From assembly GCF_040183065.1 (NCBI RefSeq), contig NC_091122.1:156739955-156803954 (forward strand): a stretch of DNA of 64,000 nt, written 5' to 3'. This DNA comes from Periplaneta americana (taxonomy: Eukaryota > Arthropoda > Insecta > Blattodea > Blattidae). Position 1 is the first letter of the stretch. Each line of letters opens with the position of its first letter. The translations under genes were made by a program, and so were the position numbers. The notes under the pieces are model-generated. The model made no database searches, was not told where the DNA came from, and was given only the letters and a program-made list of their open reading frames with translations. This document shows, one piece after another, positions 8,262 through 59,575 of this stretch.

Positions 8262-9246
8262 CGAATGTCAAATATTTAGGTATCATTATTGATCAGAATT
8301 TAAAATGGCCTCATCACATTACTTATCTTTGTAAGAGGCTTCGTAAAACAATTTATAAATTCGTTAATCTTCGATGCTACTTACCTATTAGAGTTCTACG
8401 AAATGTTTATTTGGCCATTATCATCATGGTCTATCATTCAATATGGTATAATTGTTTGGGGTGGAAGTACAAAAATTAATCTTAGTCCGTTAAATTTACT
8501 ACAAAAACGAATAATTAAAATTTGTTTGAAGAAACGTTTCGATTATCCAACTAAATTAATTTATTCTGAATTTAATGTATTTAATATTGAACAAATTTAT
8601 AAGTATACGCTGTTTATCATAAAAATCGTAATAAGTTTGTATTACAGACACACAATTATGACACAAGACGAAATATTAATTCAACATTAGTAGAACCTAA
8701 ATGTCTCACATCTGCTGGTCTAAAGCATAGCATAAATTTTGGCCCTCGGTTGTACAATGCTTTAACTAAATTACACCCAGAACTTCTAACATGTAACCCA
8801 CTAACATATAACAAGAAAATTAGAAATGTGTTAATATCTTCAATTTGATTAAATAAATTTATAGCCTATGTGTATGAATTAATCAACCTATATTATATTT
8901 GTATTCTATAATTTTGAAATATATATATTAGTCCTACTTTTCACGTGCGATATTATTCTTCTCTAGTGTTAATATTATATTATATAATTCCATTGCCGCT
9001 GTAATTATATTTTAGTTCCTATTTTATTTTACTTATATATTTATATTATTATTTTTTTTTATTTTAATATTATATCTGAACTGCGACCGAGCACGAGCGC
9101 TGCTCATTCGGTCTCAAATTTTGTTAATACTACTGTATCTGCTTTTTATATTGCTTGTATTATTTTATTTGTATTTCTCTTTGTTTGTTTTGTAATTATA
9201 TTTCTTTATTCTGTATATTTAAATTTAAATAAATAAATAAATAAAT
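8262..9246 (+). mobile_element. 5'-truncated non-LTR retrotransposon (CR1/jockey-like), copy 1
   Basis: From 8262 onward the sequence is almost identical to 53360-54325. It encodes the end of the reverse transcriptase: VKYLGIIIDQNLKW (RT domain 7), then LLQKRIIKICLKKRF and a C-terminal segment ending near 8848 (LISSI, stop). A 3' UTR of about 370 bases and an AAATAAATAA-type tail follow to 9246. Two frameshifts, near 8415 and 8650, occur at the same places in copy 2. The 5' junction lies inside the mariner-like pseudogene, typical of abortive target-primed reverse transcription. Confidence 0.85.
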
Positions 9247-10228
9247 TATTCAAACTTTTTTATAAAATGCGCTAAATCCATTTCACTTTCTTACAGATTT
9301 CCCCTCTTTTTTTGGTCATGATTCAGTCTGTGTTTTTGGTTTGCTTTAAAAAGTGCTTTCTCCTTGTCTCCAATAGCCTTAAAATAGTCTACGTAAGTTA
9401 TAAAAATTATGCTGTCTGGTACAAAAGCACTGATTAATTCAATATTGCTCTCTTTTGAAAACTATTTTCGTTTGGACCAAGTATATTTTTATTCAATGCT
9501 CCTCAATGTTGAGAAACTTTAAAGATTGATTACAAGAATATATGCACGTTAGTGGAGTGCATTTGAAGGAAGTCATTTTCAAGAAATATATATTCATACT
9601 ATATTCTATATTTTCATATAAGCTTAACGAAAGTTAATTTAATACAATATCCAAAGTTTCATTTCACTATTTAAAAGTCTCCCGTTTCTTTGGCTCACCT
9701 AGTAACTTATAGGCCTAAGTTATAAAAATATAGGCTAATAGGCCTAACTTAGGCTATATGAAAGTCTTGATAGCAAATGTTATTAAACAGACATTTCAAG
9801 ATATCCATAAAAATCATAAATCTACTACAACATTTTTTTCAGAAAGATAAGCATTTTTAGTAAAAACGTAAGCCGAAAAAAACGAGTTTGAAAGTTTGAA
9901 ATTATAGAACTACTCGTAGGGTTAGAGTCGAAAGTAAACACATGCAATTTCTCGCAAGTGTAACAGCTGCTATGGATATGAAAATTGGTGGAGGGGTATT
10001 TTAGAGCTAAAGCAATTTTTAATGACTACTAGGCATACACTTTTACTACGTCATAGGCCTAATATTTTTGACCAATAAAACTGTACGGAACGACGTGTTT
10101 CAACCAATAATGGCTGCTATCCTATAATTTTTATCACCTCCCTAGCATTTCTTTTTATCACCTCCCTAGCATTTGTTTGTTTTTATCACTTTCCTTGTTT
10201 GCCAACATTGCACTTTCAATAATTGTAG
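9247..10228. other. AT-rich spacer, no gene found
   Basis: No coding sequence recognised. Near 10126-10190 a block of about 25 bases (tttttatcacctccctagca) is tandemly duplicated with a diverged third start. Confidence 0.5.
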
Positions 10229-13298: not shown

Positions 13299-13310
13299 AC
13301 TGTTAATAAG

Positions 13311-13560
13311 TCCACACCTGTGGAGTAACGGTTAGCGCGTCTGGCTGCGAAACCAGGTGGCCCGGGTTCGAATCCCGGTTGGGGCAAGTTACCTGGTTGA
13401 GGTTTTTCCGGGGTTTTCCCTCAACCCAATACGAGCAAATGCTGGGTAACTTTCGGTGCTGGACCCCGGACTCATTTCACCGGCATTATCACCTTCATAT
13501 CATTCAGACGCTAAATAACCTAGATGTTGATACAGCGTCGTAAAATAACCGATAAAATAA
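13311..13560 (+). mobile_element. Full-length tRNA-derived SINE, family 1
   Basis: It is flanked by a perfect 12-bp duplication actgttaataag (13299-13310 and 13561-13572). The 5' head folds like a tRNA: A box tggagtaacggttagcgcg, anticodon stem ctgg/ccag, B box gggttcgaatccc. The body runs gttacctggttgagg, a pyrimidine/G block, cattcagacgctaaataacc, and ends in gataaaataa. The A and B boxes would act as an internal RNA polymerase III promoter. Two more copies are at 17783 and 24774. Confidence 0.92.
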
Positions 13561-13572
13561 ACTGTTAATAAG

Positions 13573-14280: not shown

Positions 14281-16655
14281 GTCTTCGCTGTTATAATCAT
14301 TTTCACAGTCATCATTCCAATCGTCTTTATCATTAGATCTACTACCTTTGCGAGTCATCATCTTCGACAACATCAAAATCGTATTTTTCATCGTTATCTT
14401 CGCTTTCGTCACCGCCGTCATCATCGTCGTCTTCGTTATTGCCCTTCAGCATCATCATCGCCTTTCTTTATCGCCGTCATCATCTTCGTCATCGTCATCG
14501 TCATCAGCATCATCGCCTTCGTCTTCGTCATCGCCATCATCGTCATCGTCATCGCCGTCAGCATCATCTTCGTCATCATCATCTTCGTCACCGCCGTCAT
14601 CATCGTCGTCTTCGTTATTGCCCTTCAGCATCATCATCGCCTTTCTTTATCGCCGTCATCATCTTCGTCATCGTCATCGTCATCAGCATCATCGTCTTCG
14701 TCATCGTCATCGCCGTCAGCATCATCGTCTTCGTCATCGCCGTCATCATCATCTTTGTCATCGCCATCAGCTTATCATCGTCTTCGTCATTGCCATCAGC
14801 ATCATCATCGTCTTCGTCATTGCCAACAGTAACATCATCGTCTTCGTCATTGCAATCAGCATCATCATCGTCTTCGTCATTGCCACCAGCATCATCATCG
14901 TCTTCGTCATTGCCATCAGCATCATAATCGCCTTCGTCATTGCAATCAGCATCATCATCGTCATTGCCATCAGTATCATCGTCTTCGTCATTGCCATCAG
15001 CATCATCATCATCATCATCGTCTTCGTCATTGCCATCAGCATCATCATCATCGTCTTCGTCATTGCCATCAGCATCATCATTGTCTTCGTCATTGCCATC
15101 AGCATCATCATCATCGTCTTCGTCATTGCCATCATCGTCTTCGTCATTGCCATCAGCAACATCATCGTCTTCGTCATTGCCATCAGCATCATCATCGTCT
15201 TCATCATTGCCATCAGCAACATCATCGTCTTCGTCATTGCCATCAGCAACATCGTCTTCGTCATTGCCATCAGCATCATCATTGTCTTCGTCATTGCCAT
15301 CAGCAACATCATCGTATTCGTCATTGCCATCAGCAACATCATCGTCTTCGTCATTACCATCAGCAACATCATCGTCTTCGTCATTGCCATCACCAACATC
15401 ATCATCTTCGTCATTGCCATCAGCAACATCATCGTCTTCGTCATTGCCATCAGCATCATCATCGTCTTCGTTATTGCCATCAGCAACATCATCGTCTTCG
15501 TCATTGCCATCAGCAACATCATCGTCTTCGTCATTGCCATCAGCAACATCATCGTTTTCGTCATTGCCATCAGCAACATCATCATCTTCGTCATTGCCAT
15601 CAGCATCATCATTGTCTTCGTCATTGCCATCAGCAATATCATCGTCTTCGTCATTGCCATCAGCAACATCATCGTCTTCGTCATTGCCATCAGCAACATC
15701 ATCATCTTCGTCATTGCCATCAGCAACATCATCGTCTTCGTCATTGCCATCAGCAACATCATCGTCTTCGTCATTGCCATCAGCAATATCATCATCTTCG
15801 TCATTGCCATCAGCATCATCATTGTCTTCGTCATTGCCATCAGCAACATCATCGTCTTCGTCATTGCCATCAGCAACATCATCGTCTTCGTCATTGCCAT
15901 CAGCATCATCATCGTCTTCGTCATTGCCATCAGCAACATCATCGTCTTCGTCATTGCCATCAGCAACATCATCGTCTTCGTCATTGCCATCAGCAACATC
16001 ATCGTCTTTGTCATTGCCATCAGCAACATCATCATCTTCGTCATTGCCATCAGCATCATCATTGTCTTCGTCATTGCCATCAGCAATATCATCGTCTTCG
16101 TCATTGCCATCAGCAACATCATCGTCTTCGTCATTGCCATCAGCAACATCATCATCTTCGTCATTGCCATCAGCAAAATCATCGTCTTCGTCATTGCCAT
16201 CAGCAACATCATCGTCTTCGTCATTGCCATCAGCAATATCATCATCTTCGTCATTGCCATCAGCATCATCATTGTCTTCGTCATTGCCATCAGCAACATC
16301 ATCGTCTTCGTCATTGCCATCAGCAACATCATCGTCTTCGTCATTGCCATCAGCAACATCATTGTCTTCGTCATTGCCATCAGCAACATCATCGTCTTCG
16401 TCATTGCAATCAGCATCATCATCGTCTTCATCATTGCCATCAGCATCATCATCGTCTTCGTCATTGCCATCAGCAACATCATCGTCTTCGTCATAGCCAT
16501 CAGCAACATCATCGTCTTCGTCATCGCCGTCATCATCTTCGTCTTCGTCATCGCCGTCAGATCATCAACGTCATTTTCGCCATCGCCATCGTCATCATCT
16601 TCGCCGTCATCAACGTCATCGTCGTCATCTTCGCTATCATCATCATTATCATCAT
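14232..16655. repeat. ATC-type minisatellite with 30-bp units
   Basis: It starts with a pure (CAT)n run (14235-14280). An irregular part follows, with a block of about 180 bp duplicated (ccgccgtcatcatcgtcgtc at about 14412 and 14592). From about 15120 to 16500 a regular 30-bp unit, cagcaacatcatcgtcttcg plus tcattgccat, repeats in register. Variant units recur with a 450-bp higher-order period: cagcaatatcatcgtcttcg at 15631 and 16081, cagcaatatcatcatcttcg at 15781 and 16231. Because 30 is a multiple of three and the unit lacks stops, two plus-strand frames and one minus-strand frame stay open for hundreds of codons as 10-residue repeats. Confidence 0.92.
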
Positions 16656-17775: not shown

Positions 17776-17782
17776 AACATAA

Positions 17783-18027
17783 CACATGTGGAGTAACGAT
17801 CAGCGCGTCTGGCCGCGAAACCAGGTGGCCCGGGTTCAATTCGATTCGCGCAAGTTACCTGGTTGAGGTTTTTTTCCGGGGTTTTCCCTCAACCCAATAT
17901 GAGCAAATGCTGGGTAACTTTCGGTGTTGGATCCCGGACTCATTTCACCGGCATTATCACCTTCATATCATTCAGACGCTAAATAACCTAGATGTTGATA
18001 AAGCGTAGTAAAATAACCTACTAAAAA
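17783..18027 (+). mobile_element. tRNA-derived SINE, family 1
   Basis: Same family as 13311-13560: gtggagtaacgatcagcgcg head, body with gttacctggttgagg and cattcagacgctaaataacc, tail ctactaaaaaaa. The direct repeat aacataa (17776-17782 and 18028-18034) is the probable target duplication. The B box is damaged (gggttcaattcgattcg), so this copy is older or mutated. Confidence 0.88.
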
Positions 18028-18034
18028 AACATAA

Positions 18035-20577: not shown

Positions 20578-20906
20578 TAGAGCCCGGACGTTTGGCAAAA
20601 TGTCTTTTTTACTGGGTGGAAGTAAATCATTATTTTCGTAGATATAAAATTGATTTGGGGTAAATTAAAGTGATATGACTAATTTTTATTTTGCCTATTT
20701 TGCCTTTTTAAGGTGTTTCTTACTAATAAATGCCTTTTTTCTAATTTTAAAGCAATATTTCTTGTTTATTTGCAATTTTCTGATTAATTGTAATGTAATG
20801 TGTATGAAATTTAAATACTTGAAACAATGACTCACTTTACTAACAATAATAAATCAAAGTATTTTATTTTGGTGCTTAATCTGCTAATAATCGTGCTTTA
20901 ATACTA

Positions 20907-23900
20907 GAGGAAGTTCGGGTAATGTGGACCCCTCTTTTGAAATGTCTATTTCTGCTCTTTTATTTAAAAAACATAATTTTTGTATGATTATAGTAATTAT
21001 CGTTAGTCTTTGAAGTATGAAGTAACATTGTCATTTTACTTATATATGCAACAGTTCACATTATTTTTTAATTTTTTTACATGGCAAGAGAGGTCCACTT
21101 TAACCGCCATGTTCGGGTAAAGCGGACCCTAGGGTCCACTTTACCCTCTGGTCTCAATCCAAGTTTTCAGACAAAATTAATCTTAACAGACTATCTCAAA
21201 TGAATCTAAAATTATTTATCAAGAAATTATATACTGACACTGCATATTAGGCCTATAATATAACACTAATGACATAAGTAATTAACACGATATAAATTAA
21301 GGAAACACATTAGGGTTAATTCAAGATAGTTCTGATATGAAAGAGTGTTCTTAAATTTTTGTGTCCTTTGCGGGTTTATTCGTTACAAATATCGCAAACA
21401 AACTGATCTTTATTTTCCGAACTAGCACACTCTTCATGACACCAGTCGTGACAGGAGATGCACTGTATCCACACCTCGCCTTGGGTGTCTTCGGAGAATT
21501 TCCCGTCACAGTAAATGCATTTGGAGTCATTTTCTGTATTCTTTCTTAATTTAATTTTTTTTGTATTTCCTGCATTATCATTATTTGCGAAAAGTTTTCT
21601 AGAAGCAGATCGATTTGTGATAGACTCCACTAAGGCGTTTCTAAATGGTGAGGCTGTTATCACTTCTGCTTTCCCCTTAGGTCTACCACGTTTCGACGAC
21701 TTCGCACTTGTTGATGGGGGAGGAAGAATGTCTCTGGGTGAAACTCTCATTGTAGATCTATTACCTTGACCTGACGTTGATGGTGTTTCCAGTGTTCCAT
21801 TACTGGAAGTGTTCGAACATCCTTGCTGACTTGAAGTGGAACCAACTGACCTCGGAAATTCAATCTGTTCTTCAGTGGGTTCAAGTTCACCATCTAGTGC
21901 ATCATGTGCTGTGGCTGTTTGAGGCTCATCTTCTTCTGAGGCAAAATCAACGTCAGTGAATATTCCTCTATTTACAGGATAAATTCCTGTTGCACGAAAA
22001 CCATTCACAGCAATTGCTCCTGTTTGAGCCTTTAAATAGGCTTTTCCAAAGAGCTCGGACACCTCATAATGGGTCACAGCTCGGCCACTGTTACGCAGGT
22101 ATGTCCTCACTTCTTCACTGTAGTAGTGCTTCAGAGCCCCCATAAATGTCTTGTCTAGCGGCTGGATCTTGTGTGAGCTGTGAGGTGGAATGCACACGAT
22201 TGTCACATGATGAGCTCTTGCTTTGTCAATCAAAGCAATGTTCCTTGTATGGCTGTGATGACCATCGAGAATCAGTAGCACTGGTTCATTTACTGAAGGC
22301 TTTACATTAGAAATGAAGTGATCAAACCACTCTGAGAACACAGTGGTGTTAATCCATCCAGAAGGCTGGCATGTGAATACTGTTCCTGGAGGTGCACCCT
22401 TAGCTAGCAGGCCACTGAAATTTTTCCTAGGAAAAATCATCATCGGAGGAACATACGTCCCCCCAGCACTCATGCAGGCGACCACAGTTACAAGGGATCC
22501 TCTTTCAGCGGATGTAATTGCACCGATCTGTCGTTTTCCTTTCAGTGCAACAACTTTTGGAATTTTGCTTTGCACGACAGACAGCCCAGTCTCGTCCACA
22601 TTAAAGACGCGACTGGGTTCAAAATTATGCTTAGCAAATTCTGCTTCGAGGATGTCAAAGAAAGCACCAACGCTAGCCTTGTTGAATCCCTTTGTTCTTG
22701 ATAGTGATGTTCCCGTTGCAGAACGAATTGAAATTCTGTCTTTATGGCGTCTTAGAAAACCATAAAGCCAGTCTTTGCCAGCAGAACCTCTCAGTTCAGA
22801 GAACCTATTTGTGATGCCATTTCTCTTAGCAAGCTGAAACGCAAGCATTTTAACGTCCTGTCTTGTTAACCCGAAATATTTCTGTTCCATCATAACAAGA
22901 TAATCTACCAGCTCTGTCTCCAATTCTTGCGAGAAAACAGGTTTCCTTCCTAATTTTGTGCGAATAGCTTCTTCCGCGGGCTTGTCCATTTTCACATATC
23001 TCCGAAGTGACGTCTTCGGCACTTTAAACAATTTCTCGGCTTTGTTGAAACCCATTTCTTTGTTTCTTATAGCAGTCACTGCTCGAATCATCGCCTCCTC
23101 ATTCCATGATTTTAATTTTCTTTTCTCAGACATCTGACAAAAAACAAATTTGGAATGAATTAGTGAATATATATTTGGAGTTAATGTAAGAAACATAGAT
23201 ATTTCCTTAGTGGCATGATAAAGTTATTGTCCCTGGGCATGGTCGTAATAATTCACATCTTCATCCCTCTGCAGACGGCGAATGTTTCTAGCTCTAATGG
23301 CAGTACATGGCCGTAGTTTAATAAAATGAATAAATAAGTTAATTACCATGACTTTGTAATAAATTTGTTTATAATTGATAAATTTCACTTAATTTAATTG
23401 TTGTAAGAAAAAAGCAGGAAGAAGCATTGTTGGCGATAAAAAATGTATAGTGTTGTATTTTGTGTGGTTAAATATATTGCAAGTTGTAACGTAGTGCATG
23501 AATGTGGCAAATTTAATTTATTGAATAAATATTTTTCATACTAAATTTTAACATAGTAGATTACACTAAAATGAGTTTAATTATTGGAACAGAGCGCGAG
23601 AGTGAAATATTGTACGATTCTTTACGCAATATTTGTCACAATGCAGTTGCATTGAAGAAAAGCGTGCGAGCGGGAAATGTGGACCCGGGTCCACTTTCTC
23701 CGCCACAGGGAGGGTCCACGTTAGCCGAAGTTCTTTGTTTGTGTTCACATTATTGCACAGCCGGCATGCCACATAGTTTCAAACAAATTCCGTAGATTAT
23801 TAACAACAATATCTATACTGAATAGTATACTTAGGAGTTGTTTTAATATATACAGTATTCATAGCAATATTTAGGAATTTTCTCTTACCTTCAAAAACTT

Positions 23901-24094
23901 ACAGGAAGACCGTTTCACAAATACTAAAAAATACACCCTTCTTCTCAGTCACAATAAAGAAAACTGACCTTCTACACGTCAAACATGATGAGGGGAAGAA
24001 GTTAAGAGGGTTGTCGTTTGATGGCAGCACCAATTGGAGAAAATATTAACAGGGTCCACTCAAACCGAAGGGTCCACATTACCCGAACTTCCTC
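20907..24094 (-). mobile_element. Complete pogo/Tigger-type DNA transposon, 3188 bp
   Basis: The termini are perfect inverted repeats, GAGGAAGTTCGGGTAATGTG then GACCC, flanked by TA at 20905-20906 and 24095-24096, the TA duplication of the Tc1/mariner/pogo superfamily. One long ORF on the minus strand fills 21376-23133. Subterminal copies of a GGTCCAC-TTTA-CC-like motif occur near both ends (see findings). Intact ends, intact ORF and a clean target duplication make this a recently active copy. It lies inside an older hAT element. Confidence 0.95.
21376..23133 (-). CDS. Pogo-type DDD transposase with AT-hook and C-terminal PHD finger
   Basis: 585 residues. It cuts and pastes the element that carries it (20907-24094), acting in the nucleus on the terminal repeats. 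The frame is open 21 codons further upstream, but the start at 23133 ([10 protein letters not shown]) is chosen because similar transposases begin just before the helix-turn-helix. Residues 1-48 are a Psq/CENP-B-like HTH ([20 protein letters not shown]); about 66-135 a second, Tc5/CENP-B-type DNA-binding segment. The DDE_1 catalytic core has D180 ([10 protein letters not shown]), D290 ([10 protein letters not shown]) and D327 ([10 protein letters not shown]), spacing DD36D. A serine-rich linker contains an AT-hook-like KRGRPKGK (481-488). Residues 539-583 form a C4HC3 PHD finger (C539, C542, C558, C561, H566, C569, C580, C583). No stop or frameshift. Function from family knowledge; activity is inferred. 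Confidence 0.94.
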
Positions 24095-24367
24095 TATTGG
24101 TGCCATATGAATACTGATCGACAATCCACAGTTACAAATATAATGTCATGTCTTCACGATACCAAAAATCAAGTTTATAATTTTAAATATTAAGTCCGTT
24201 CTCATAGAAGTTGTCTCGTAGCATTTTCAGTCGTTTGCTTTCGTATTTTCAAATCTTACTGTTACAATTTTGTGCTACACGTGTTTATTATTGTAGAAGA
24301 GAGAAATTTGAGTGAGGAACAGTTAGTTATTGTCGGGTGACAGATGTTATAAGATCGGTTAGATAGA

Positions 24368-24560
24368 ATGCCTAAATTCAGTAAACCATTGAAAAGTAAA
24401 ATGCATGCTTACGTTAGTGAATTTGGTGCCTAGGGTATGTTTTTTCAACCGATGGAACAGTTTTATTATGTAAAGTTTGTGAAAAGACAGTTAATCAGGA
24501 AAAAAGTAGCCTATTTTATACGTCAACATGTGTCAACTACGGAGTAAAAATGTAAATTAT
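24368..24560 (+). pseudogene. hAT transposase N-terminus (BED-like), broken
   Basis: MPKFSKPLKSKMHAYVSEFG is followed by a stop and a frameshift, then a YVKFVKRQ-like stretch. It is the same leader as at 1968 and resembles residues 1-40 of the intact hAT transposase at 57854. No zinc-finger or catalytic part survives. It sits next to the right terminus of the hAT-like element ending at 24698. Confidence 0.6.
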
Positions 24561-24773
24561 GTTGATATAATTTAGGCCTAAATTTATTGCTAAAATATAT
24601 TATGCTTTTCAAAATTTTATTGTGCATTTTTTTTACGTTTTATTGCCTTTTTTGCCTGCCTATTTCAACTGTTATAAATGCCTAAACTCCGGGCTCTAGT
24701 CATAAACTTCCGATTTTATCAATCACAATTATTATTTCAGTCAACATCGGAAATTGAACACAGGAACATGTAG

Positions 24774-25025
24774 TCCACACCTGTGGAGTAACGGTTAGCG
24801 CGTCTGGCCGCGAAACCAGGTGGCCCGGGTTCGAATCCCGGTCGGGGCAAGTTACCTGGTTGAGGTTTCTTCCGGGGTTTTCCCTCAACCCAATATGAGG
24901 AAATGCTGGGTAACTTTCGGTGCTGGACCCCGGAATCATTTCACCGACATTATCACCTTCACCTCATTCAGACGCTAAATAACCTAAGCTATTGATAAAG
25001 CGTCGTAAAATAACTTACTAAAAAA
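24774..25025 (+). mobile_element. Full-length tRNA-derived SINE, family 1
   Basis: The perfect duplication aacatgtag flanks it (24765-24773 and 25026-25034). It begins tccacacctgtggagtaacg and has an intact B box gggttcgaatcccgg, body and oligo(A) tail. It is very close to the 13311 copy. Confidence 0.92.
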
Positions 25026-25094
25026 AACATGTAGTGATAGAGATACACGCTAGCGCTGATGAACTGGGAGCCTTATTCTATGTTTGGGACATTA

Positions 25095-33760: not shown

Positions 33761-36625
33761 TAATCGAAAACGGAAAATTACGTAGGCCTATCGATAATAA
33801 CAGTTATAAGCTTAGGTTAATATAGCTTTCTTAAATGAGTTAATATATATGAAAATCGAAAACTGAAGATTACATATCGACAATAACAGTTATAAGTTAG
33901 TACAGCTTTCTTAAATGAGTTAATATAAATAATAATCGAAAACGAAATATTACGTATCGACAATATCAGTTATAGGTTAGTTATAGCTTTGTTAAATGAG
34001 TTAATGTAAGTAATAATAATAACGAAAACGGAAGATTAAGTATCGACAATAACAGTTATAGGTTAGTTATAGCTTTGTTAAATGTGTTAATATAAATAAT
34101 AATCGAAAACGAACATTACGTATCGACAATAACAGTTATAGGTTAGTTATAGCTTTGTTAAATGAGTTAATATAAATAATAATCGAAAACGAAATATTAC
34201 GTATCAACAATAACAGATATAGGTTAGTTATAGCTTTGTTAAATGAGTTAATATAAGTAATGATAATCGAAACGGAAGATTAAGTATCGACAATAACAGT
34301 TATAGGTTAGTTATAGCTTTGTTAAATGAGTTAATATAAATATTAATCGAAAACGAAATATTACGTATCGACAATAACAGATATAGGTTAGTTATAACTT
34401 TGCTAAATGAGTTAATATAAATAATAATTGAAAACGGAAGATTAAGTATCGACAATAGCAGTTATAGGTTAGTTATAGCTTTGTTAAATGAGTTAATATA
34501 AATAATCGAAAATGAAATATTACGTATCGACAATAACAGATATAGGTTAGTTATAACTTTGCTAAATGAGTTAATATAAGTAATAATAATAGACAACGGA
34601 AGATTAAGTATCGACAATAACAGTTATAGGTTAGTTATAGCTTTGTTAAATGAGTTAATATACATATTAATCGAAAACGAAATATTACGTATCGACAATA
34701 ACAGATATAGGTTAGTTATAACTTTGCTAAATGAGTTAATATAAATAATAATTGAAAACGGAAGATTAAGTATCGACAATAACAGTTATAGGTTAGTTAT
34801 AGCTTTGTTAAATGAGTTAATATAAATAATGAAAACGGAACATTACGTATCGGCAATAATAGTTATAGGTTAGTTATAGCTTTGTTAAATGAGTTAATAT
34901 AAATAATAATCGAAAACGGAACATTACGTATCGACAATAACAGTTATAGGTTAGTATAGCTCTGTTAAAGGAGTTAATATAAACAATAATCGATAACGGA
35001 ACATTACCTATCGAAAATAACAGTTATAGGTTAGTTATAGCTTTGTTAAATGAGTTAATATAAATAATAATCGAAAACGGAACATTACGTATCGACAATA
35101 ACAGTTATAGGTTAGTATAGCTCTGTTAAAGGAGTTAATATAAACAATAATCGATAACGGAACATTACCTATCGAAAATAACAGTTATAGGTTAGTTATA
35201 GCTTTGTTAAATGAGTTAATATAAATAATAATCGAAAACGGAACATTACGTATCGGCAATAATAGTTATAGGTTAGTTATAGCTTTGTTAAATGAGTTAA
35301 TATAAATAATAATCGAAAACGGAACATTACGTATCGACAATAACAGTTATAGGTTAGTATAGCTCTGTTAAAGGAGTTAATATAAACAATAATCGATAAC
35401 GGAACATTACCTATCGAAAATAACAGTTATAGGTTAGTTATAGCTTTGTTAAATGAGTTAATATAAATAATAATCGAAAACGGAACATTACGTATCGGCA
35501 ATAATAGTTATAGGTTAGTTATAGCTTTGTTAAATGAGTTAATATAAATAATAATCGAAAACGGAACATTACGTATCGACAATAACAGTTATAGGTTAGT
35601 ATAGCTCTGTTAAAGGAGTTAATATAAACAATAATCGATAACGGAACATTGCCTATCGAAAATAACAGTTATAGGTTAGTTATAGCTTTGTTAAATGAGT
35701 TAATATAAATAATAATCGAAAACGGAACATTACGTATCGGCAATAATAGTTATAGGTTAGTTATAGCTTTGTTAAATGAGTTAATATAAATAATAATCGA
35801 AAACGGAACATTACGTATCGACAATAACAGTTATAGGTTAGTATAGCTCTGTTAAAGGAGTTAATGTAAACAATAATCGATAACGGAACATTACCTATGG
35901 AAAATAACAGTTATAGGTTAGTTATAGCTTTGTTAAATGAGTTAATATAAATAATAATCGAAAACGGAACATTACGTATCGGCAATAACAGTTATAGTTT
36001 ACTATAGCTCTGTTAAAGAAGTTAATATAAACAATAATCGATAACGGAACATTACCTATCGACAATAACAGTTATAGGTTAGTTATAGCTTTGTTAAATG
36101 AGTTAATATAAATAATAATCGAAAACGGAACATTACGTATCGGCAATAACAGTTATAGTTTACTATAGCTCTGTTAAAGAAGTTAATATAAACAATAATC
36201 GATAACGGAACATTACGTATCGACAATAACAGTTATAGGTTACTATACGTCGTTGTTCCTGCAATAACTCCTATGTGCAAAATATAAAATTTTTCAGTAG
36301 GAAAAAAAATACATTTATTTATCCTATGGCAGCCGTACATAGGACACTGTGAATTCTTACATTTTCAAAACAAAGAAATATAATTACACATAGGAGATTT
36401 TATTATTTTCTGTATCACTATTTAAGTTATTTAATAGAGCAAAAATCTGAAAGTCGATAAATACTCTATGTCACATAGGAGTTATTGCAGGAACAATGGC
36501 GTATAGTTTTGTCAAATGAGTTAATATAAATAATAATCGAAAACGGAAGATTACGTATTGACAATAACAGTTATAGGTTAGTTATAGCTTTGTTAAATGA
36601 GTTAATATAAATAATAATCGAAAAA
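33760..36625. repeat. 81-bp satellite array with dimeric and trimeric higher-order units
   Basis: About 32 tandem copies of an about 81-bp AT-rich unit (ttataggttagttatagctt, tgttaaatgagttaatataa, ataatcgaaaacgg, attacgtatcgacaataaca). From about 34850 to 35950 three unit types alternate: one with cggcaataat (about 34850, 35253, 35493 and 35738), one standard, and one with tctgttaaaggag and cctatcgaaaat. Their period of about 240-245 bp marks a trimeric higher-order repeat. Edge units diverge most, as expected for homogenisation by unequal exchange. A MITE interrupts it at 36248. Confidence 0.93.
36248..36501. mobile_element. 254-bp MITE inserted in the 81-bp satellite
   Basis: Its ends are CGTCGTTGTTCCTGCAATAA and, inverted, CGCCATTGTTCCTGCAATAA; the arms continue through CTCCTATGTG (about 30 bp). 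The satellite is interrupted between tata (36244-36247) and tata (36502-36505), so the target duplication is TA or TATA. No coding capacity. Confidence 0.88.
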
Positions 36626-45462: not shown

Positions 45463-46304
45463 CAGGGAAAGGAAGTTCATGCCCAAAAAACGTGAAGAAT
45501 ATATATGCATTTATGCTTTAAAAATAGATAAATATGCTACAAAATATGTATTATCAGTCTGAGATTATTTTAACAGAAAAGTAAGGTATAGGTAACTTAC
45601 GTTTAGTCTATGGATTTTGAAGTGCTTGCCTCATTGCTAAATGCTCCATTTATGCTGTTACAGTTCACAACTAAGCAGTGACGTATGTTTTCTGTTGTCA
45701 TTCTTCGCCTGTTGTCTCTCAGCATAGCTTTGTAGCGTGAAAAACTCCGTTCTACGTCACAAGAAGTAAGAGGGGCTTGCATAAAAGCTGTGAGCTGTTC
45801 TATAGAAAATTTTGTTAGTTTTTTGGGGTGTTTTTCTTCCGAGAATATCTTTAATTTGTTTAAGTTGATAATATCCAGGGTTTTTGGAAAAAATATTTGC
45901 TGTTTTCTCGTTCACTTTATCTCCTTCACTTTCTGGAACTGATGTTAAACTGGATATTGTTCTGCTAAAGACTGCAGTAAAGGAATACCAATTGCTAACT
46001 TGAGAGGCTCCCTATGAGAGCGTCTTCGTTACGTTCAAAATTCATAAACACAAATTAGTCGTGTTTACGAGGTTACACACTTTTAAAAATGAGGGAAAGA
46101 CAAATAAACATACATAATATACAGTTTCTCTGCATAAATGTTAAAATATGATGCTTTTATAAATAAAGGCAAAATATGCACTTTTATCCACAATAAAAGT
46201 AATATCACTGTATTCAGAAATTTGTGATTCATGTAGATAATCTTTCAGCATATTCACACAACGATAGAGAACGAATATGCAAATGCATGAACTTCCTTTC
46301 CCTA
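45463..46304 (-). mobile_element. hAT element, 842 bp, with transposase remnant
   Basis: Its ends are CAGGGAAAGGAAGTTCATGC and, inverted, TAGGGAAAGGAAGTTCATGC. The flanking 8-mers atcataag (45455-45462) and atcataac (46305-46312) match at seven positions. The first 11 bases of the terminus equal those of the intact hAT transposon at 57380. It contains the C-terminal end of a transposase of the same type on the minus strand. Confidence 0.87.
45608..45930 (-). pseudogene. hAT transposase C-terminus (dimerisation domain)
   Basis: The minus strand reads KTLDIINLNKLKIFSEEKHP, then [40 protein letters not shown] and a short tail to the stop at 45608. The [10 protein letters not shown]-x-Y-K block is the hAT C-terminal dimerisation motif and aligns with residues about 454-490 of the intact protein at 57854 ([20 protein letters not shown]). 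The catalytic part is deleted. It depends on a full-length relative for mobility, possibly one like the 57380 element given the shared terminus. Confidence 0.82.
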
Positions 46305-52680: not shown

Positions 52681-52684
52681 CTAA

Positions 52685-54325
52685 ATAAATATGATAAAAT
52701 CCTCTCTAAAAATCAGTTTGGTTTCCGCAATAATATTTCTACTGATGATGCTCTTATTAATGTTACTGGAAAAATTATCAATGAACTAGATACCGGAAAC
52801 AAATGTTTGGGTATTTTCTTGGATCTACGGAAAGCTTTTGACACTATCAATCATAATTTACTTTTGGACAAACTACATACTATTGGAGTTAGAGGTATAG
52901 TTTTAAAATTATTCCAATCATATTTTAGTAACAGAAGGCAAATTACCAAAATTGAAGATCAATTTAGTGAATACAAATATATTGATATAGGTGTACCGCA
53001 AGGAACAATTTTGGGACCTATTTTATTTCTAATATATGTTAATGTTCTGCTAAATATAAATTTAGAAAAATTTAATGGATCTATATATTCATATGCGGAT
53101 GATACAGTAGTTATTTTCAGTGGTTTTTCTTGGCAGGAAGCATATAGAAATGCTAATATAGGTGCTAACATTGTTAAAAAATGGCTTAATTCCAACTTCC
53201 TTTCTTTAAATATATCTAAATCAAATTTAGTTCCTTTTTCGTTAACAGCTGCCAGTGTTCAAAATTTAAAATTTAGCGATAAATATAGACTAATAATACA
53301 CAGTGAAAATTGTTTAGATGCCAAAAGTTGTAAATGTCCACCTTTGAAAGAAGCCACGTATGTCAAATATCTGGGTATCATTATTGATCAGAATTTAAAA
53401 TGGCCTCATCACATTACTTATCTTTGTAAGAGGCTTCGTAAAACAATTTATAAATTCGTTAATCTTCGATGCTACTTACCTATTAGAGTTCTACGAAATG
53501 TTTATTTGGCCATTATCATCATGGTCTATCATTCAATATGGTATAATTGTTTGGGGTGGAAGTACAAAAATTAATCTTAGTCCGTTAAATTTACTACAAA
53601 AACGAATAATTAAAATTTGTTTGAAGAAACGTTTCGATTATCCAACTAAATTAATTTATTCTGAATTTAATGTATTTAATATTGAACAAATTTATAAGTA
53701 TACGCTGTTTATCATAAAAATCGTAATAAGTTTGTATTACAGACACACAATTATGACACAAGACGAAATATTAATTCAACATTAGTAGAACCTAAATGTC
53801 TCACATCTGCTGGTCTAAAGCATAGCATAAATTTTGGCCCTCGGTTGTACAATGCTTTAACTAAATTACACCCAGAACTTCTAACATGTAACCCACTAAC
53901 ATATAACAAGAAAATTAGAAACGTGTTAATATCTTCAATTTGATTACATAAATTTATAGCCTATGTGTATGAATTAATCAACCTATATTATATTTGTATT
54001 CTATAATTTTGAAATATATATTAGTCCTACTTTTCACGTGCGATATTATTCTTCTATAGTGTTAATATTATATTATATAATTCCATTGCCGCTGTAATTA
54101 TATTTTAGTTCCTATTTTATTTTACTTATATATTTATATTATTATTTTTTTTTATTTTAATATTATATCTGAACTGCGACCGAGCACGAGCGCTGCTCAT
54201 TCGGTCTCAAATTTTGTTAATACTACTGTATCTTCTTTTTATATTGCTTGTATTATTTTATTTGTATTTCTCTTTGTTTGTTTTGTAATTATATTTCTTT
54301 ATTATGTATAGTTGAAATACATAAA
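52685..54325 (+). mobile_element. 5'-truncated non-LTR retrotransposon (CR1/jockey-like), copy 2, with reverse transcriptase
   Basis: From 52693 the frame reads DKILSKNQFGFRNNISTDDA (domain 2), FLDLRKAFDTINHNLL (domain 3), GVPQGTILGPILFLIYVN (domain 4), YSYADDTVVIFSG (domain 5, catalytic YADD intact) and YVKYLGIIIDQNLKW (domain 7). The frame shifts near 53510 and again near 53745, with the C-terminus ending near 53943. A 3' UTR of about 370 bases and an AAATAAATA tail follow. The reverse transcriptase would prime at nicked target DNA; the endonuclease and ORF1 are lost. From 53360 on it is nearly identical to 8262-9246, including both frameshifts. Confidence 0.9.
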
Positions 54326-54889
54326 TAAATAAAAATAAATTTTATGTAAAATGTTACAAGGCATCAGTACTAGAAAAGTTTGAAGTACTTTTCATATAAT
54401 TAGGCCTACTCAAAAGTCCTGGGCGATAGACAAATTTTGAAAACAGATCTGAAATCAGCACGAAAATGCTATAAGAATCACCTATTCGTTATCTTTTAAC
54501 AAAAAATATATTTAATTTTGTTGACCAATTATCAACATTAAATTTTTTCTTTATTCTTTTTTCGTATAGGTAATCATTTCACAATATTATTGTAATTCAT
54601 ATGTTCTATAATGTTAATTTTCATTTATTTCGAAGATTCTAACATTATTTTGTTAGTGCAAAACATATTAATAAATCAAGAATCTCAATTATTAACATTA
54701 AAATATTATTTCCTCTATTTTTTTTTGTTTATAGATAATCATTTCACAACATGGCTCATAATTATTTTCCATTTATTTCGAACATTCTAATATTCTTTTG
54801 TTAGTGTAGAGCATATTAATAAATCGAGATTCTCATTTACCAACATTAAACTATTTTTTATACATTCTGTAGTGTGTATAGCTATTATC
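54326..54889. repeat. AT-rich spacer with diverged tandem repeat of about 155 bp
   Basis: Blocks atttatttcgaagattctaa, gttagtgcaaaacatattaa and aatcattt cacaa-type sequence recur at about 54580-54720 and 54735-54880 with many differences. Similar words occur near 51600-51680. Coding sequence was not seen. Confidence 0.5.

Positions 54890-57379: not shown

Positions 57380-59575
<2,196 letters not shown>

What the first reader, a model, noticed from the sequence alone, without database searches (positions are those of the whole stretch)
20907..24094. Apparently intact pogo transposon whose transposase ends in an AT-hook and a C4HC3 PHD finger
Perfect terminal repeats, a clean TA duplication and an uninterrupted 585-residue DDD transposase are seen directly. 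The PHD-type finger (C539 to C583) and the [10 protein letters not shown]-hook are chromatin-reading modules. Their fusion to a transposase suggests that the element may steer insertion or expression through histone or DNA context (inference).
Basis: partly seen in the sequence, partly recalled or inferred. Interest (0 to 1): 0.7.

Follow-up and report, generated by a model that had tools for sequence, protein, structure and literature searches.

The report
Intact pogo transposon with PHD-like tail
This is a complete, probably recent jumping gene whose enzyme carries at its tail a DNA-gripping motif and a zinc finger resembling those that read histone marks, set between ends studded with copies of one short DNA site; it makes chromatin-guided jumping testable but is otherwise a member of a well-known family.

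Summary
A 3188-bp element (20907-24094) has 25-bp perfect terminal repeats, a TA duplication and an open 585-aa DD36D transposase with HTH_psq, HTH_Tnp_Tc5 and DDE_1 domains: pogo superfamily. The C-terminal finger (C539-C583) fits the PHD ligand pattern and none of six others tried; its nearest solved relative is the PHF13 PHD finger, a likeness lost in shuffled controls. It stays below Pfam's PHD cut-off, so I call it PHD-like. It is acidic (pI 4.15), which favours histone over DNA contact; two of three PHF13 cage positions are Trp, the third is unmatched. The AT-hook is by motif only. New here: nine copies of a bipartite site (GGGTCCACWTTANCCG), four left and five right, none in the coding part; its core occurs nowhere else in the window: likely transposase-binding sites. 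Chromatin steering remains inference. Relatives were sought and not found in the collections on hand; genome copies and fold could not be examined (genome search did not complete, structure prediction off). PHD fingers on transposases are known in other superfamilies; eight literature searches showed me no pogo example.

The parts
20905..20906 (.). TA target-site duplication, left
   Evidence: sequence
20907..20931 (+). left terminal inverted repeat, 25 bp, perfect
20914..20931 (-). bipartite end site 1 (GGGTCCACATTACCCGAA), inside the left TIR
21091..21108 (+). bipartite end site 2
21112..21129 (-). bipartite end site 3, head to head with site 4 (94% palindrome, I4)
21132..21149 (+). bipartite end site 4
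21375..21380 (-). AATAAA overlapping the stop codon, possible poly(A) signal (inference)
21376..23133 (-). transposase ORF, 585 aa plus stop
21385..21519 (-). PHD-like C4HC3 finger, residues 539-583
21670..21693 (-). AT-hook-like KRGRPKGK, residues 481-488 (motif recalled, no profile match)
22084..22491 (-). DDE_1 catalytic core as matched by Pfam, residues 215-350; catalytic D180 (22594-22596, outside the matched stretch), D290 (22264-22266), D327 (22153-22155)
22732..22929 (-). HTH_Tnp_Tc5 domain, residues 69-134
22990..23100 (-). HTH_psq domain, residues 12-48
23134..23888 (-). possible 5'-leader intron: donor-like GTAAG at 23888 (another at 23902), acceptor-like TTTTTTGTCAG just before the ATG (inference)
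23669..23686 (-). bipartite end site 5, head to head with site 6
23687..23704 (+). bipartite end site 6
23712..23729 (+). bipartite end site 7
24052..24069 (+). bipartite end site 8, tandem with site 9 (18-bp step); the weakest of the nine (24.1 bits)
24070..24087 (+). bipartite end site 9, inside the right TIR
24070..24094 (-). right terminal inverted repeat, 25 bp, perfect
24095..24096 (.). TA target-site duplication, right
   Evidence: sequence

Best explanation
A probably recent, potentially autonomous cut-and-paste DNA transposon of the pogo superfamily. Its transposase binds, through the paired psq and Tc5-type helix-turn-helix domains, an array of nine bipartite 16-18 bp sites at the two ends (inferred), and cuts and rejoins DNA at TA with its DDD core (family knowledge). 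Three sites (5-7) lie in the presumed leader intron and two (8, 9) upstream of it, so bound transposase could also dampen its own promoter (inferred). The C-terminal tail, an AT-hook motif followed by an acidic PHD-like finger, most likely holds the transposase on nucleosomes by minor-groove contact plus contact with the histone H3 tail, and not by reading the transposon's ends (inferred, least certain step). Rough weights: element and core chemistry 0.95; finger has a PHD-type cross-brace fold 0.8; nine sites are transposase sites 0.85; finger contacts histone H3 about 0.45, with a methyl-lysine preference about 0.3.
For: Ends, TA duplication, ORF and triad. Domains. Nine sites: GGGTCCACNTTANCC with up to 2 mismatches gives 11 matches in the window, 9 of them in the element and 2 outside (both with 2 mismatches), against 0.33 expected and at most 2 in 100 shuffles; core GGTCCRC-N5-CC 9 in the element, all in its 469-bp and 961-bp non-coding ends, 0 elsewhere in the window, at most 2 in 168,815 first-order simulations of the element (the core was chosen after seeing the sites); profile scores 24-30 bits for the nine, next best 11.9, that profile being built from the nine themselves. 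Two conserved blocks with a variable AT-rich middle fit a two-domain DNA reader. PHD-likeness: the PDB search of the 54-aa tail lists 27 chains up to E=10; 2 of 27 are under 0.01, both PHF13 (best 0.0028), and the first 13 are all proteins that I know to carry PHD fingers, row 14 (ZBTB17) is not. With Cys/His kept and the rest shuffled, 2 of 2 controls list no PHD protein (5 and 2 rows, best E 0.17 and 0.11) and 3 of 3 lose the Pfam PHD match. Acidity: residues 539-585 pI 4.15, charge about -9, whole protein about +18 (one search gave 4.05 with the stop sign left in the string); in piggyBac-type transposases the DNA-binding CRD is positive and the H3-binding Pgm CRD is negative (PMC8086355, passages). 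Cage: W555 and W564 lie at PHF13 M246 and W255, I556 and F578 at I247 and F272 of the Ala1 pocket (alignments; residues from PMC4915813, passages).
Against: The finger is under Pfam's PHD cut-off, and C1_1 scores almost the same. The third PHF13 cage residue F241 aligns with T550, and F241A abolished binding in PHF13. E248 is Q557 here and E248A also abolished binding, though EBS and SHL have Q at that place too. No relative, copy or fold was obtained, so conservation of the tail is untested. One element cannot show that the sites are bound. Only 2 of the 3 shuffled controls were given to the PDB search, and all E-values against solved structures are weak.
Confidence: 0.5

Rival explanations
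1. The finger is a second DNA reader for the transposon's own end sites, like the PHD-like cross-brace CRD of piggyBac transposase, which binds a repeated motif at piggyBac ends.
For: Direct precedent for a C-terminal PHD-like finger that binds repeated end motifs (PMC8086355, passages); this element has nine repeated end sites.
Against: The finger is acidic (pI 4.15) whereas the DNA-binding piggyBac CRD is positive; two HTH domains already account for a bipartite site.
Confidence: 0.15
2. The finger only folds and pairs proteins (dimerisation, host partner or nuclear retention) and reads no histone mark.
For: Cage incomplete by alignment; weak profile score; many PHD fingers bind no histone (general knowledge).
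Against: The cage tryptophan W564 and the second cage position (W555) are both aromatic; the Ala1-pocket hydrophobics I556 and F578 are kept.
Confidence: 0.3
3. The locus is a domesticated host gene and not a mobile element.
For: Intact frame with chromatin-type tail, as in the chimeric domesticated genes POGZ, POGK and CENPB (PMC7386202). Copy number is unknown.
Against: Perfect 25-bp ends, TA duplication and end-site arrays are all still present; DDD triad intact.
Confidence: 0.03
4. The Cys/His cluster is a chance or non-PHD zinc finger (C1, RING, LIM, FYVE, MYND).
For: Pfam scores C1_1 as high as PHD (17.6 and 17.8 bits); neither reaches its cut-off.
Against: The C1 score is matched by 1 of 3 shuffled controls (18.6 bits), so Cys/His spacing alone can give it; C1's first His is absent; of seven ligand patterns (recalled) only PHD fits.
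Confidence: 0.05

Closest known systems
pogo superfamily of IS630-Tc1-mariner transposons (Gao et al. 2020, PMC7386202: abstract, sections 6 and 8, passages; Dupeyron et al. 2020, PMC7325037: abstract, passages)
   Same: TA duplication, TIR of 40 bp or less, N-terminal HTH_psq/HTH_Tnp_Tc5, DDE_1 core, DDxD triad, length and transposase size in range.
   Different: Adds an AT-hook motif and a PHD-like finger; 'PHD' occurs 0 times in either main text. Caution: Dupeyron Fig. 1 has a symbol for a zinc finger domain, the figure is not held, and the text seen ties a zinc finger only to ciliate TBE; supplements were not seen.
piggyBac transposase CRD and PiggyMac CRD (PMC8086355, passages)
   Same: C-terminal cross-brace zinc finger on a transposase; one version binds repeated end motifs, another the H3 tail.
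   Different: Other transposase superfamily; the PiggyMac ligand order and fold differ from PHD; the piggyBac CRD is positively charged, this finger is acidic.
Ginger1-9_HM and Rehavkus transposons (PMC2836005 and PMC6446971, passages)
   Same: DNA transposons whose transposase includes a PHD finger.
   Different: Different superfamilies; in Ginger1-9_HM the PHD accompanies an Ulp1 protease domain.
PHF13 PHD finger (PMC4915813, passages; PDB 3o7a, 3o70)
   Same: Best-scoring solved relative of the finger (E=0.0028); cage positions M246 and W255 are W555 and W564; the protein also combines PHD with DNA binding.
   Different: Cage F241 not matched (T550); host chromatin protein.
POGZ, POGK, CENPB (PMC7386202, passage)
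   Same: pogo transposases joined to further domains.
   Different: Domesticated vertebrate genes; the added domains are N-terminal zinc fingers (POGZ), KRAB (POGK) or a C-terminal dimerisation domain (CENPB).

Membership tests
pogo superfamily | TA target-site duplication | tested here: met
pogo superfamily | TIR of 40 bp or less (type 1 of Gao et al.) | tested here: met
   25 bp perfect; range
pogo superfamily | DDE_1 core with DDxD triad, spacing 29-59 | tested here: met
   D180, D290, D327 = DD36D; range
pogo superfamily | N-terminal HTH DNA-binding domain(s) of the CENP-B type | tested here: met
   HTH_psq 38 bits and HTH_Tnp_Tc5 24.1 bits with the N-terminal part alone; in the 606-aa reading Tc5 is 20.9 bits, below its 22.2 cut-off
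pogo superfamily | phylogenetic placement in the pogo clade | not testable with these tools
   no reference transposases or relatives were obtained
Passer family within pogo | DD35D (almost all members); BrkDBD and/or HTH_Tnp_Tc5 | tested here: not met
   DD36D and HTH_psq
Fot/Fot-like family within pogo | HTH_psq and/or HTH_Tnp_Tc5 with DD35D in almost all; TA, TAA or TAAA | tested here: inconclusive
   psq plus Tc5 is the pairing reported for Fot/Fot-like and TA occurs there, but the spacing is DD36D, reported for only four Fot-like elements of Ichthyosporea, and none is reported from animals
Mover family within pogo | DD36D without detectable DNA-binding domain, in red algae and Chromista | tested here: not met
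   DD36D met, but psq and Tc5 domains are detected
Tigger family within pogo | DD29-36D with CENP-B_N and/or HTH_Tnp_Tc5 | tested here: inconclusive
   spacing and Tc5 fit; first domain scores as HTH_psq, CENP-B_N not listed; pogoR (DD29-59, same domains) is equally open
PHD finger | C4HC3 ligand order and spacing | tested here: met
   (pattern recalled); 1 match in six frames of the window, 0 of 100,000 shuffles
PHD finger | hydrophobic residue two before the seventh ligand, Trp two before the His (recalled signature) | tested here: met
   F578 and W564 aligned with PHF13, EBS and SHL
PHD finger | Pfam PF00628 score above the curated cut-off | tested here: not met
   17.8 against 24 bits for the 54-aa tail; 10.2 bits in the 606-aa reading
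PHD finger | cross-brace PHD fold | not testable with these tools
   structure prediction switched off
H3K4me2/3 reader (PHF13 type) | three-residue cage F241, M246, W255 | tested here: inconclusive
   W555 and W564 fit two; F241 aligns with T550
C1 domain | first ligand His 11-13 residues before C-x2-C, and C-x(6,7)-C end (recalled) | tested here: not met
AT-hook | GRP core flanked by basic residues (recalled) | tested here: met
   KRGRPKGK by eye; no Pfam AT-hook match at E up to 10 in a 114-aa tail piece that contains it

The most novel reading that the evidence does not exclude
A chromatin-reading DNA transposon: the transposase tail reads the H3 tail (methylated K4 or unmodified) together with AT-rich minor groove and so biases where the element inserts or when it is cut out, while its nine-site ends act as a transposase-responsive switch on its own gene.
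Probability: 0.25. Interest if true: 0.75.

Novelty: new variant of a known kind. Interest (0 to 1): 0.42.

Why it matters
Insertion choice of most cut-and-paste transposons is explained by DNA sequence and accessibility (general knowledge). A pogo transposase with its own PHD-like finger would be a natural, single-protein test of histone-guided insertion, and a parallel to chimeric host genes such as POGZ, in which a pogo transposase was joined to further domains. Here the joining would have come before any domestication.

Tried and rejected
Relatives: the search for related loci in viral contigs (16 stretches matched a peptide pattern, none confirmed) and genome contigs (34 matched, none confirmed). 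Finger pattern in viral contigs: 2 stretches; the open frames listed there look like phage structural proteins and none like a transposase (my reading; no profile search), and tblastn of the 585-aa protein found nothing in them, so taken as chance. Exact 25-bp end in viral contigs: 0. Catalytic pattern P-H-x-x-H-K-x-Q-P-L-D in viral contigs: 0; in genome contigs: 5 stretches, none a relative (best tblastn E=0.084); only one of the five, the insect-symbiont contig L004, was read further, and it holds bacterial cell-wall genes by my reading. Phage records: no match. PDB search of the 606-aa protein: none at E up to 0.1; of 278 aa from the N-terminus into the catalytic region: 4 weak rows, the best LCoR (psq-type by recall) at E=0.79. 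NCBIfam: IS630 transposase, 45.3 bits, below its cut-off of 100.

C1, RING, RING-CH, LIM, FYVE and MYND readings of the finger rejected by ligand pattern. A second copy or an empty site within the window: none found at E up to 1e-3.

Literature, pogo transposase with a PHD finger: 0 papers; 15, all listed; 5 hold the terms, 4 listed; 5; 62 hold four or more terms, 15 listed; 0; 0; 8; one search asked for blattodean pogo elements (21, 8 listed). None describes one in what I saw; in PMC12595863 and PMC9004415 'PHD' is the degree, in PMC9632168 a reference title, in PMC10799480 a domain of a fungal chromatin remodeller with other transposon-type domains. The other listed papers were not opened. 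From memory, untested here: I believe that a number of annotated invertebrate DDE_1 proteins end in a similar C-x2-C...W-x2-C-x2-C-x2-W-x-H finger, so the combination may be common in databases though not described in the papers found.
Full report
What is there. The coordinates in the finding are exact. The element runs from 20907 to 24094 (3188 bp, 38.7% G+C in a 33.7% window) between TA dinucleotides at 20905-20906 and 24095-24096, with 25-bp perfect inverted ends. On the minus strand one frame is open from 23133 to 21376. The 585-residue reading starts at an ATG that directly follows a T-rich tract and CAG, so a spliced 5' leader is likely, with donor-like GTAAG at 23888 or 23902; an upstream in-frame ATG would give 606 residues. 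An AATAAA overlaps the stop codon. These signals are read from sequence only; there are no transcripts.

What the protein is. Pfam finds DDE_1 (2.3e-23), HTH_psq (9.6e-9) and, weaker, HTH_Tnp_Tc5 (above its cut-off with the N-terminal part alone). The triad is D180, D290, D327, i.e. DD36D. With the TA duplication and short TIR this meets the tested features of the pogo superfamily as set out by Gao et al. (PMC7386202, section 8). Inside the superfamily it does not fit Passer (DD35D, no psq) or Mover (no detectable DNA-binding domain). Fot/Fot-like share the psq plus Tc5 pairing but are almost all DD35D and are not reported from animals; Tigger and pogoR fit in spacing but are reported with CENP-B_N. 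The family is left open; no tree could be built.

The tail. Residues 481-488, KRGRPKGK, have the AT-hook form (motif recalled; no Pfam match). Residues 539-583 hold eight ligands in PHD order, C-x2-C-x15-C-x2-C-x4-H-x2-C-x10-C-x2-C; of seven zinc-finger patterns tried, all recalled, only the PHD pattern fits. The profile evidence is modest: Pfam PHD gives 17.8 bits against a cut-off of 24 for the tail alone, and C1 gives nearly the same (17.6). Controls separate the two. When all residues but Cys and His are shuffled, the PHD match vanishes in 3 of 3 controls while one control scores C1 even higher (18.6 bits), so the C1 score can come from spacing alone. Against solved structures the tail lists 27 chains up to E=10, of which 2 are under 0.01, both PHF13 (best 0.0028); the first 13 are all proteins that I know to carry PHD fingers. 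The 2 shuffled controls searched list 5 and 2 chains, none a PHD protein, best E 0.17 and 0.11. The fold itself is unproven because structure prediction was off.

What the tail may do. PHF13 binds H3K4me3 with the cage F241, M246, W255 and an Ala1 pocket that includes I247 and F272 (PMC4915813, passages). In the alignment M246 is W555, W255 is W564, I247 is I556 and F272 is F578, but F241 is T550 and E248 is Q557, and in PHF13 F241A and E248A each abolished binding. EBS and SHL also carry Q at the E248 place. So a histone groove is plausible and a K4me3 cage is incomplete on paper; F546, in a longer loop, could supply the missing wall (inference). Residues 539-585 are strongly acidic, pI 4.15 and charge about -9, in a protein of charge about +18 (one search gave pI 4.05 because the stop sign was left in the string). 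In the piggyBac group, the positively charged CRD binds repeated end motifs and the negatively charged PiggyMac CRD binds no DNA but, weakly, the H3 tail (PMC8086355, passages). By that yardstick this finger should contact histone and not DNA. That is an analogy across superfamilies, not a test.

The ends carry nine copies of one bipartite site, consensus GGGTCCACWTTANCCG: starts at 20914 (-), 21091 (+), 21112 (-), 21132 (+) at the left; 23669 (-), 23687 (+), 23712 (+), 24052 (+), 24070 (+) at the right. With up to two mismatches, GGGTCCACNTTANCC is found 11 times in the window, 9 in the element and 2 outside (two mismatches each), where shuffles give 0.33 on average and 2 at most. The core GGTCCRC-N5-CC, chosen after seeing the sites, is found 9 times in the element, all in the two non-coding ends, 0 times elsewhere in the window, and at most 2 times in 168,815 first-order simulations of the element. 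The two outermost copies lie inside the TIRs. Two pairs are head to head (21112/21132 and 23669/23687) and one pair is tandem at an 18-bp step (24052/24070). Two fixed blocks around a variable AT-rich middle are what a protein with two helix-turn-helix domains would need, as CENP-B does on its box (recalled). The transposase is the obvious reader. Sites 8 and 9 lie upstream of the presumed leader intron and sites 5-7 within it, so self-regulation is possible (inference).

How it most likely works. Bound at the arrays, the transposase pairs the ends, cuts at TA and reinserts at TA (general knowledge of the superfamily). The AT-hook and finger add a second grip on nucleosomal DNA and, most likely, on the H3 tail. 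Whether that biases insertion, helps finding of targets, or only raises residence time cannot be told from one copy.

What is missing. No relative was found in viral contigs, bacterial and archaeal genomes or phage records, as expected for an animal transposon. The window's own assembly could not be searched: 17 of 17 requests did not complete. The perfect 25-bp ends and open frame suggest a young insertion.

Novelty. PHD fingers on transposases are known in Ginger1-9_HM and Rehavkus, and PHD-like cross-brace fingers in piggyBac. For pogo I found none in eight literature searches of the held library (mostly listings, eleven papers opened in part over the session), and 'PHD' occurs 0 times in the main texts of the two broad pogo surveys. 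Their supplements and figures were not seen, and one of them has a zinc-finger symbol in its Figure 1 key, which its text ties only to ciliate TBE elements in what I saw. I recall similar tails in unnamed database proteins of invertebrates, so the combination may well be common. I rate it a new variant of a known kind, of moderate interest.

Noticed in passing
57746-59338 (+): Open frame of 530 aa (494 from its MPKVRHS start) with a DUF659 match (2.7e-12), a hAT-type transposase by my recall, uninterrupted over that length; a 65-aa piece of a relative lies at 45660-45854.
   Followed up: partly
8262-9247 and 53357-54341: Two stretches 98.3% identical over about 989 bp; the second overlaps the end of a reverse-transcriptase frame (RVT_1, 52681-53574), so probably two recent copies of one LINE.
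   Followed up: partly
13309-13565, 17782-18032, 24772-25032: Three copies of a repeat of about 255 bp, 90-93% alike, SINE-like in size; one lies about 680 bp beyond the right end of the pogo element.
   Followed up: no
14422-16572: Minisatellite with a 30-bp unit (about 72 copies) whose length keeps five frames open for 522-792 codons on both strands; these are by-products of the period, not evidence of genes.
   Followed up: no
33789-36242: Tandem array of an 81-bp unit, about 30 copies, 89% matches.
   Followed up: no
24354-24705 and 1948-2277: DNA about 260 bp beyond the right end of the pogo element shares an 81%-identical stretch with the left part of the window: another dispersed repeat family beside the insertion.
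   Followed up: no
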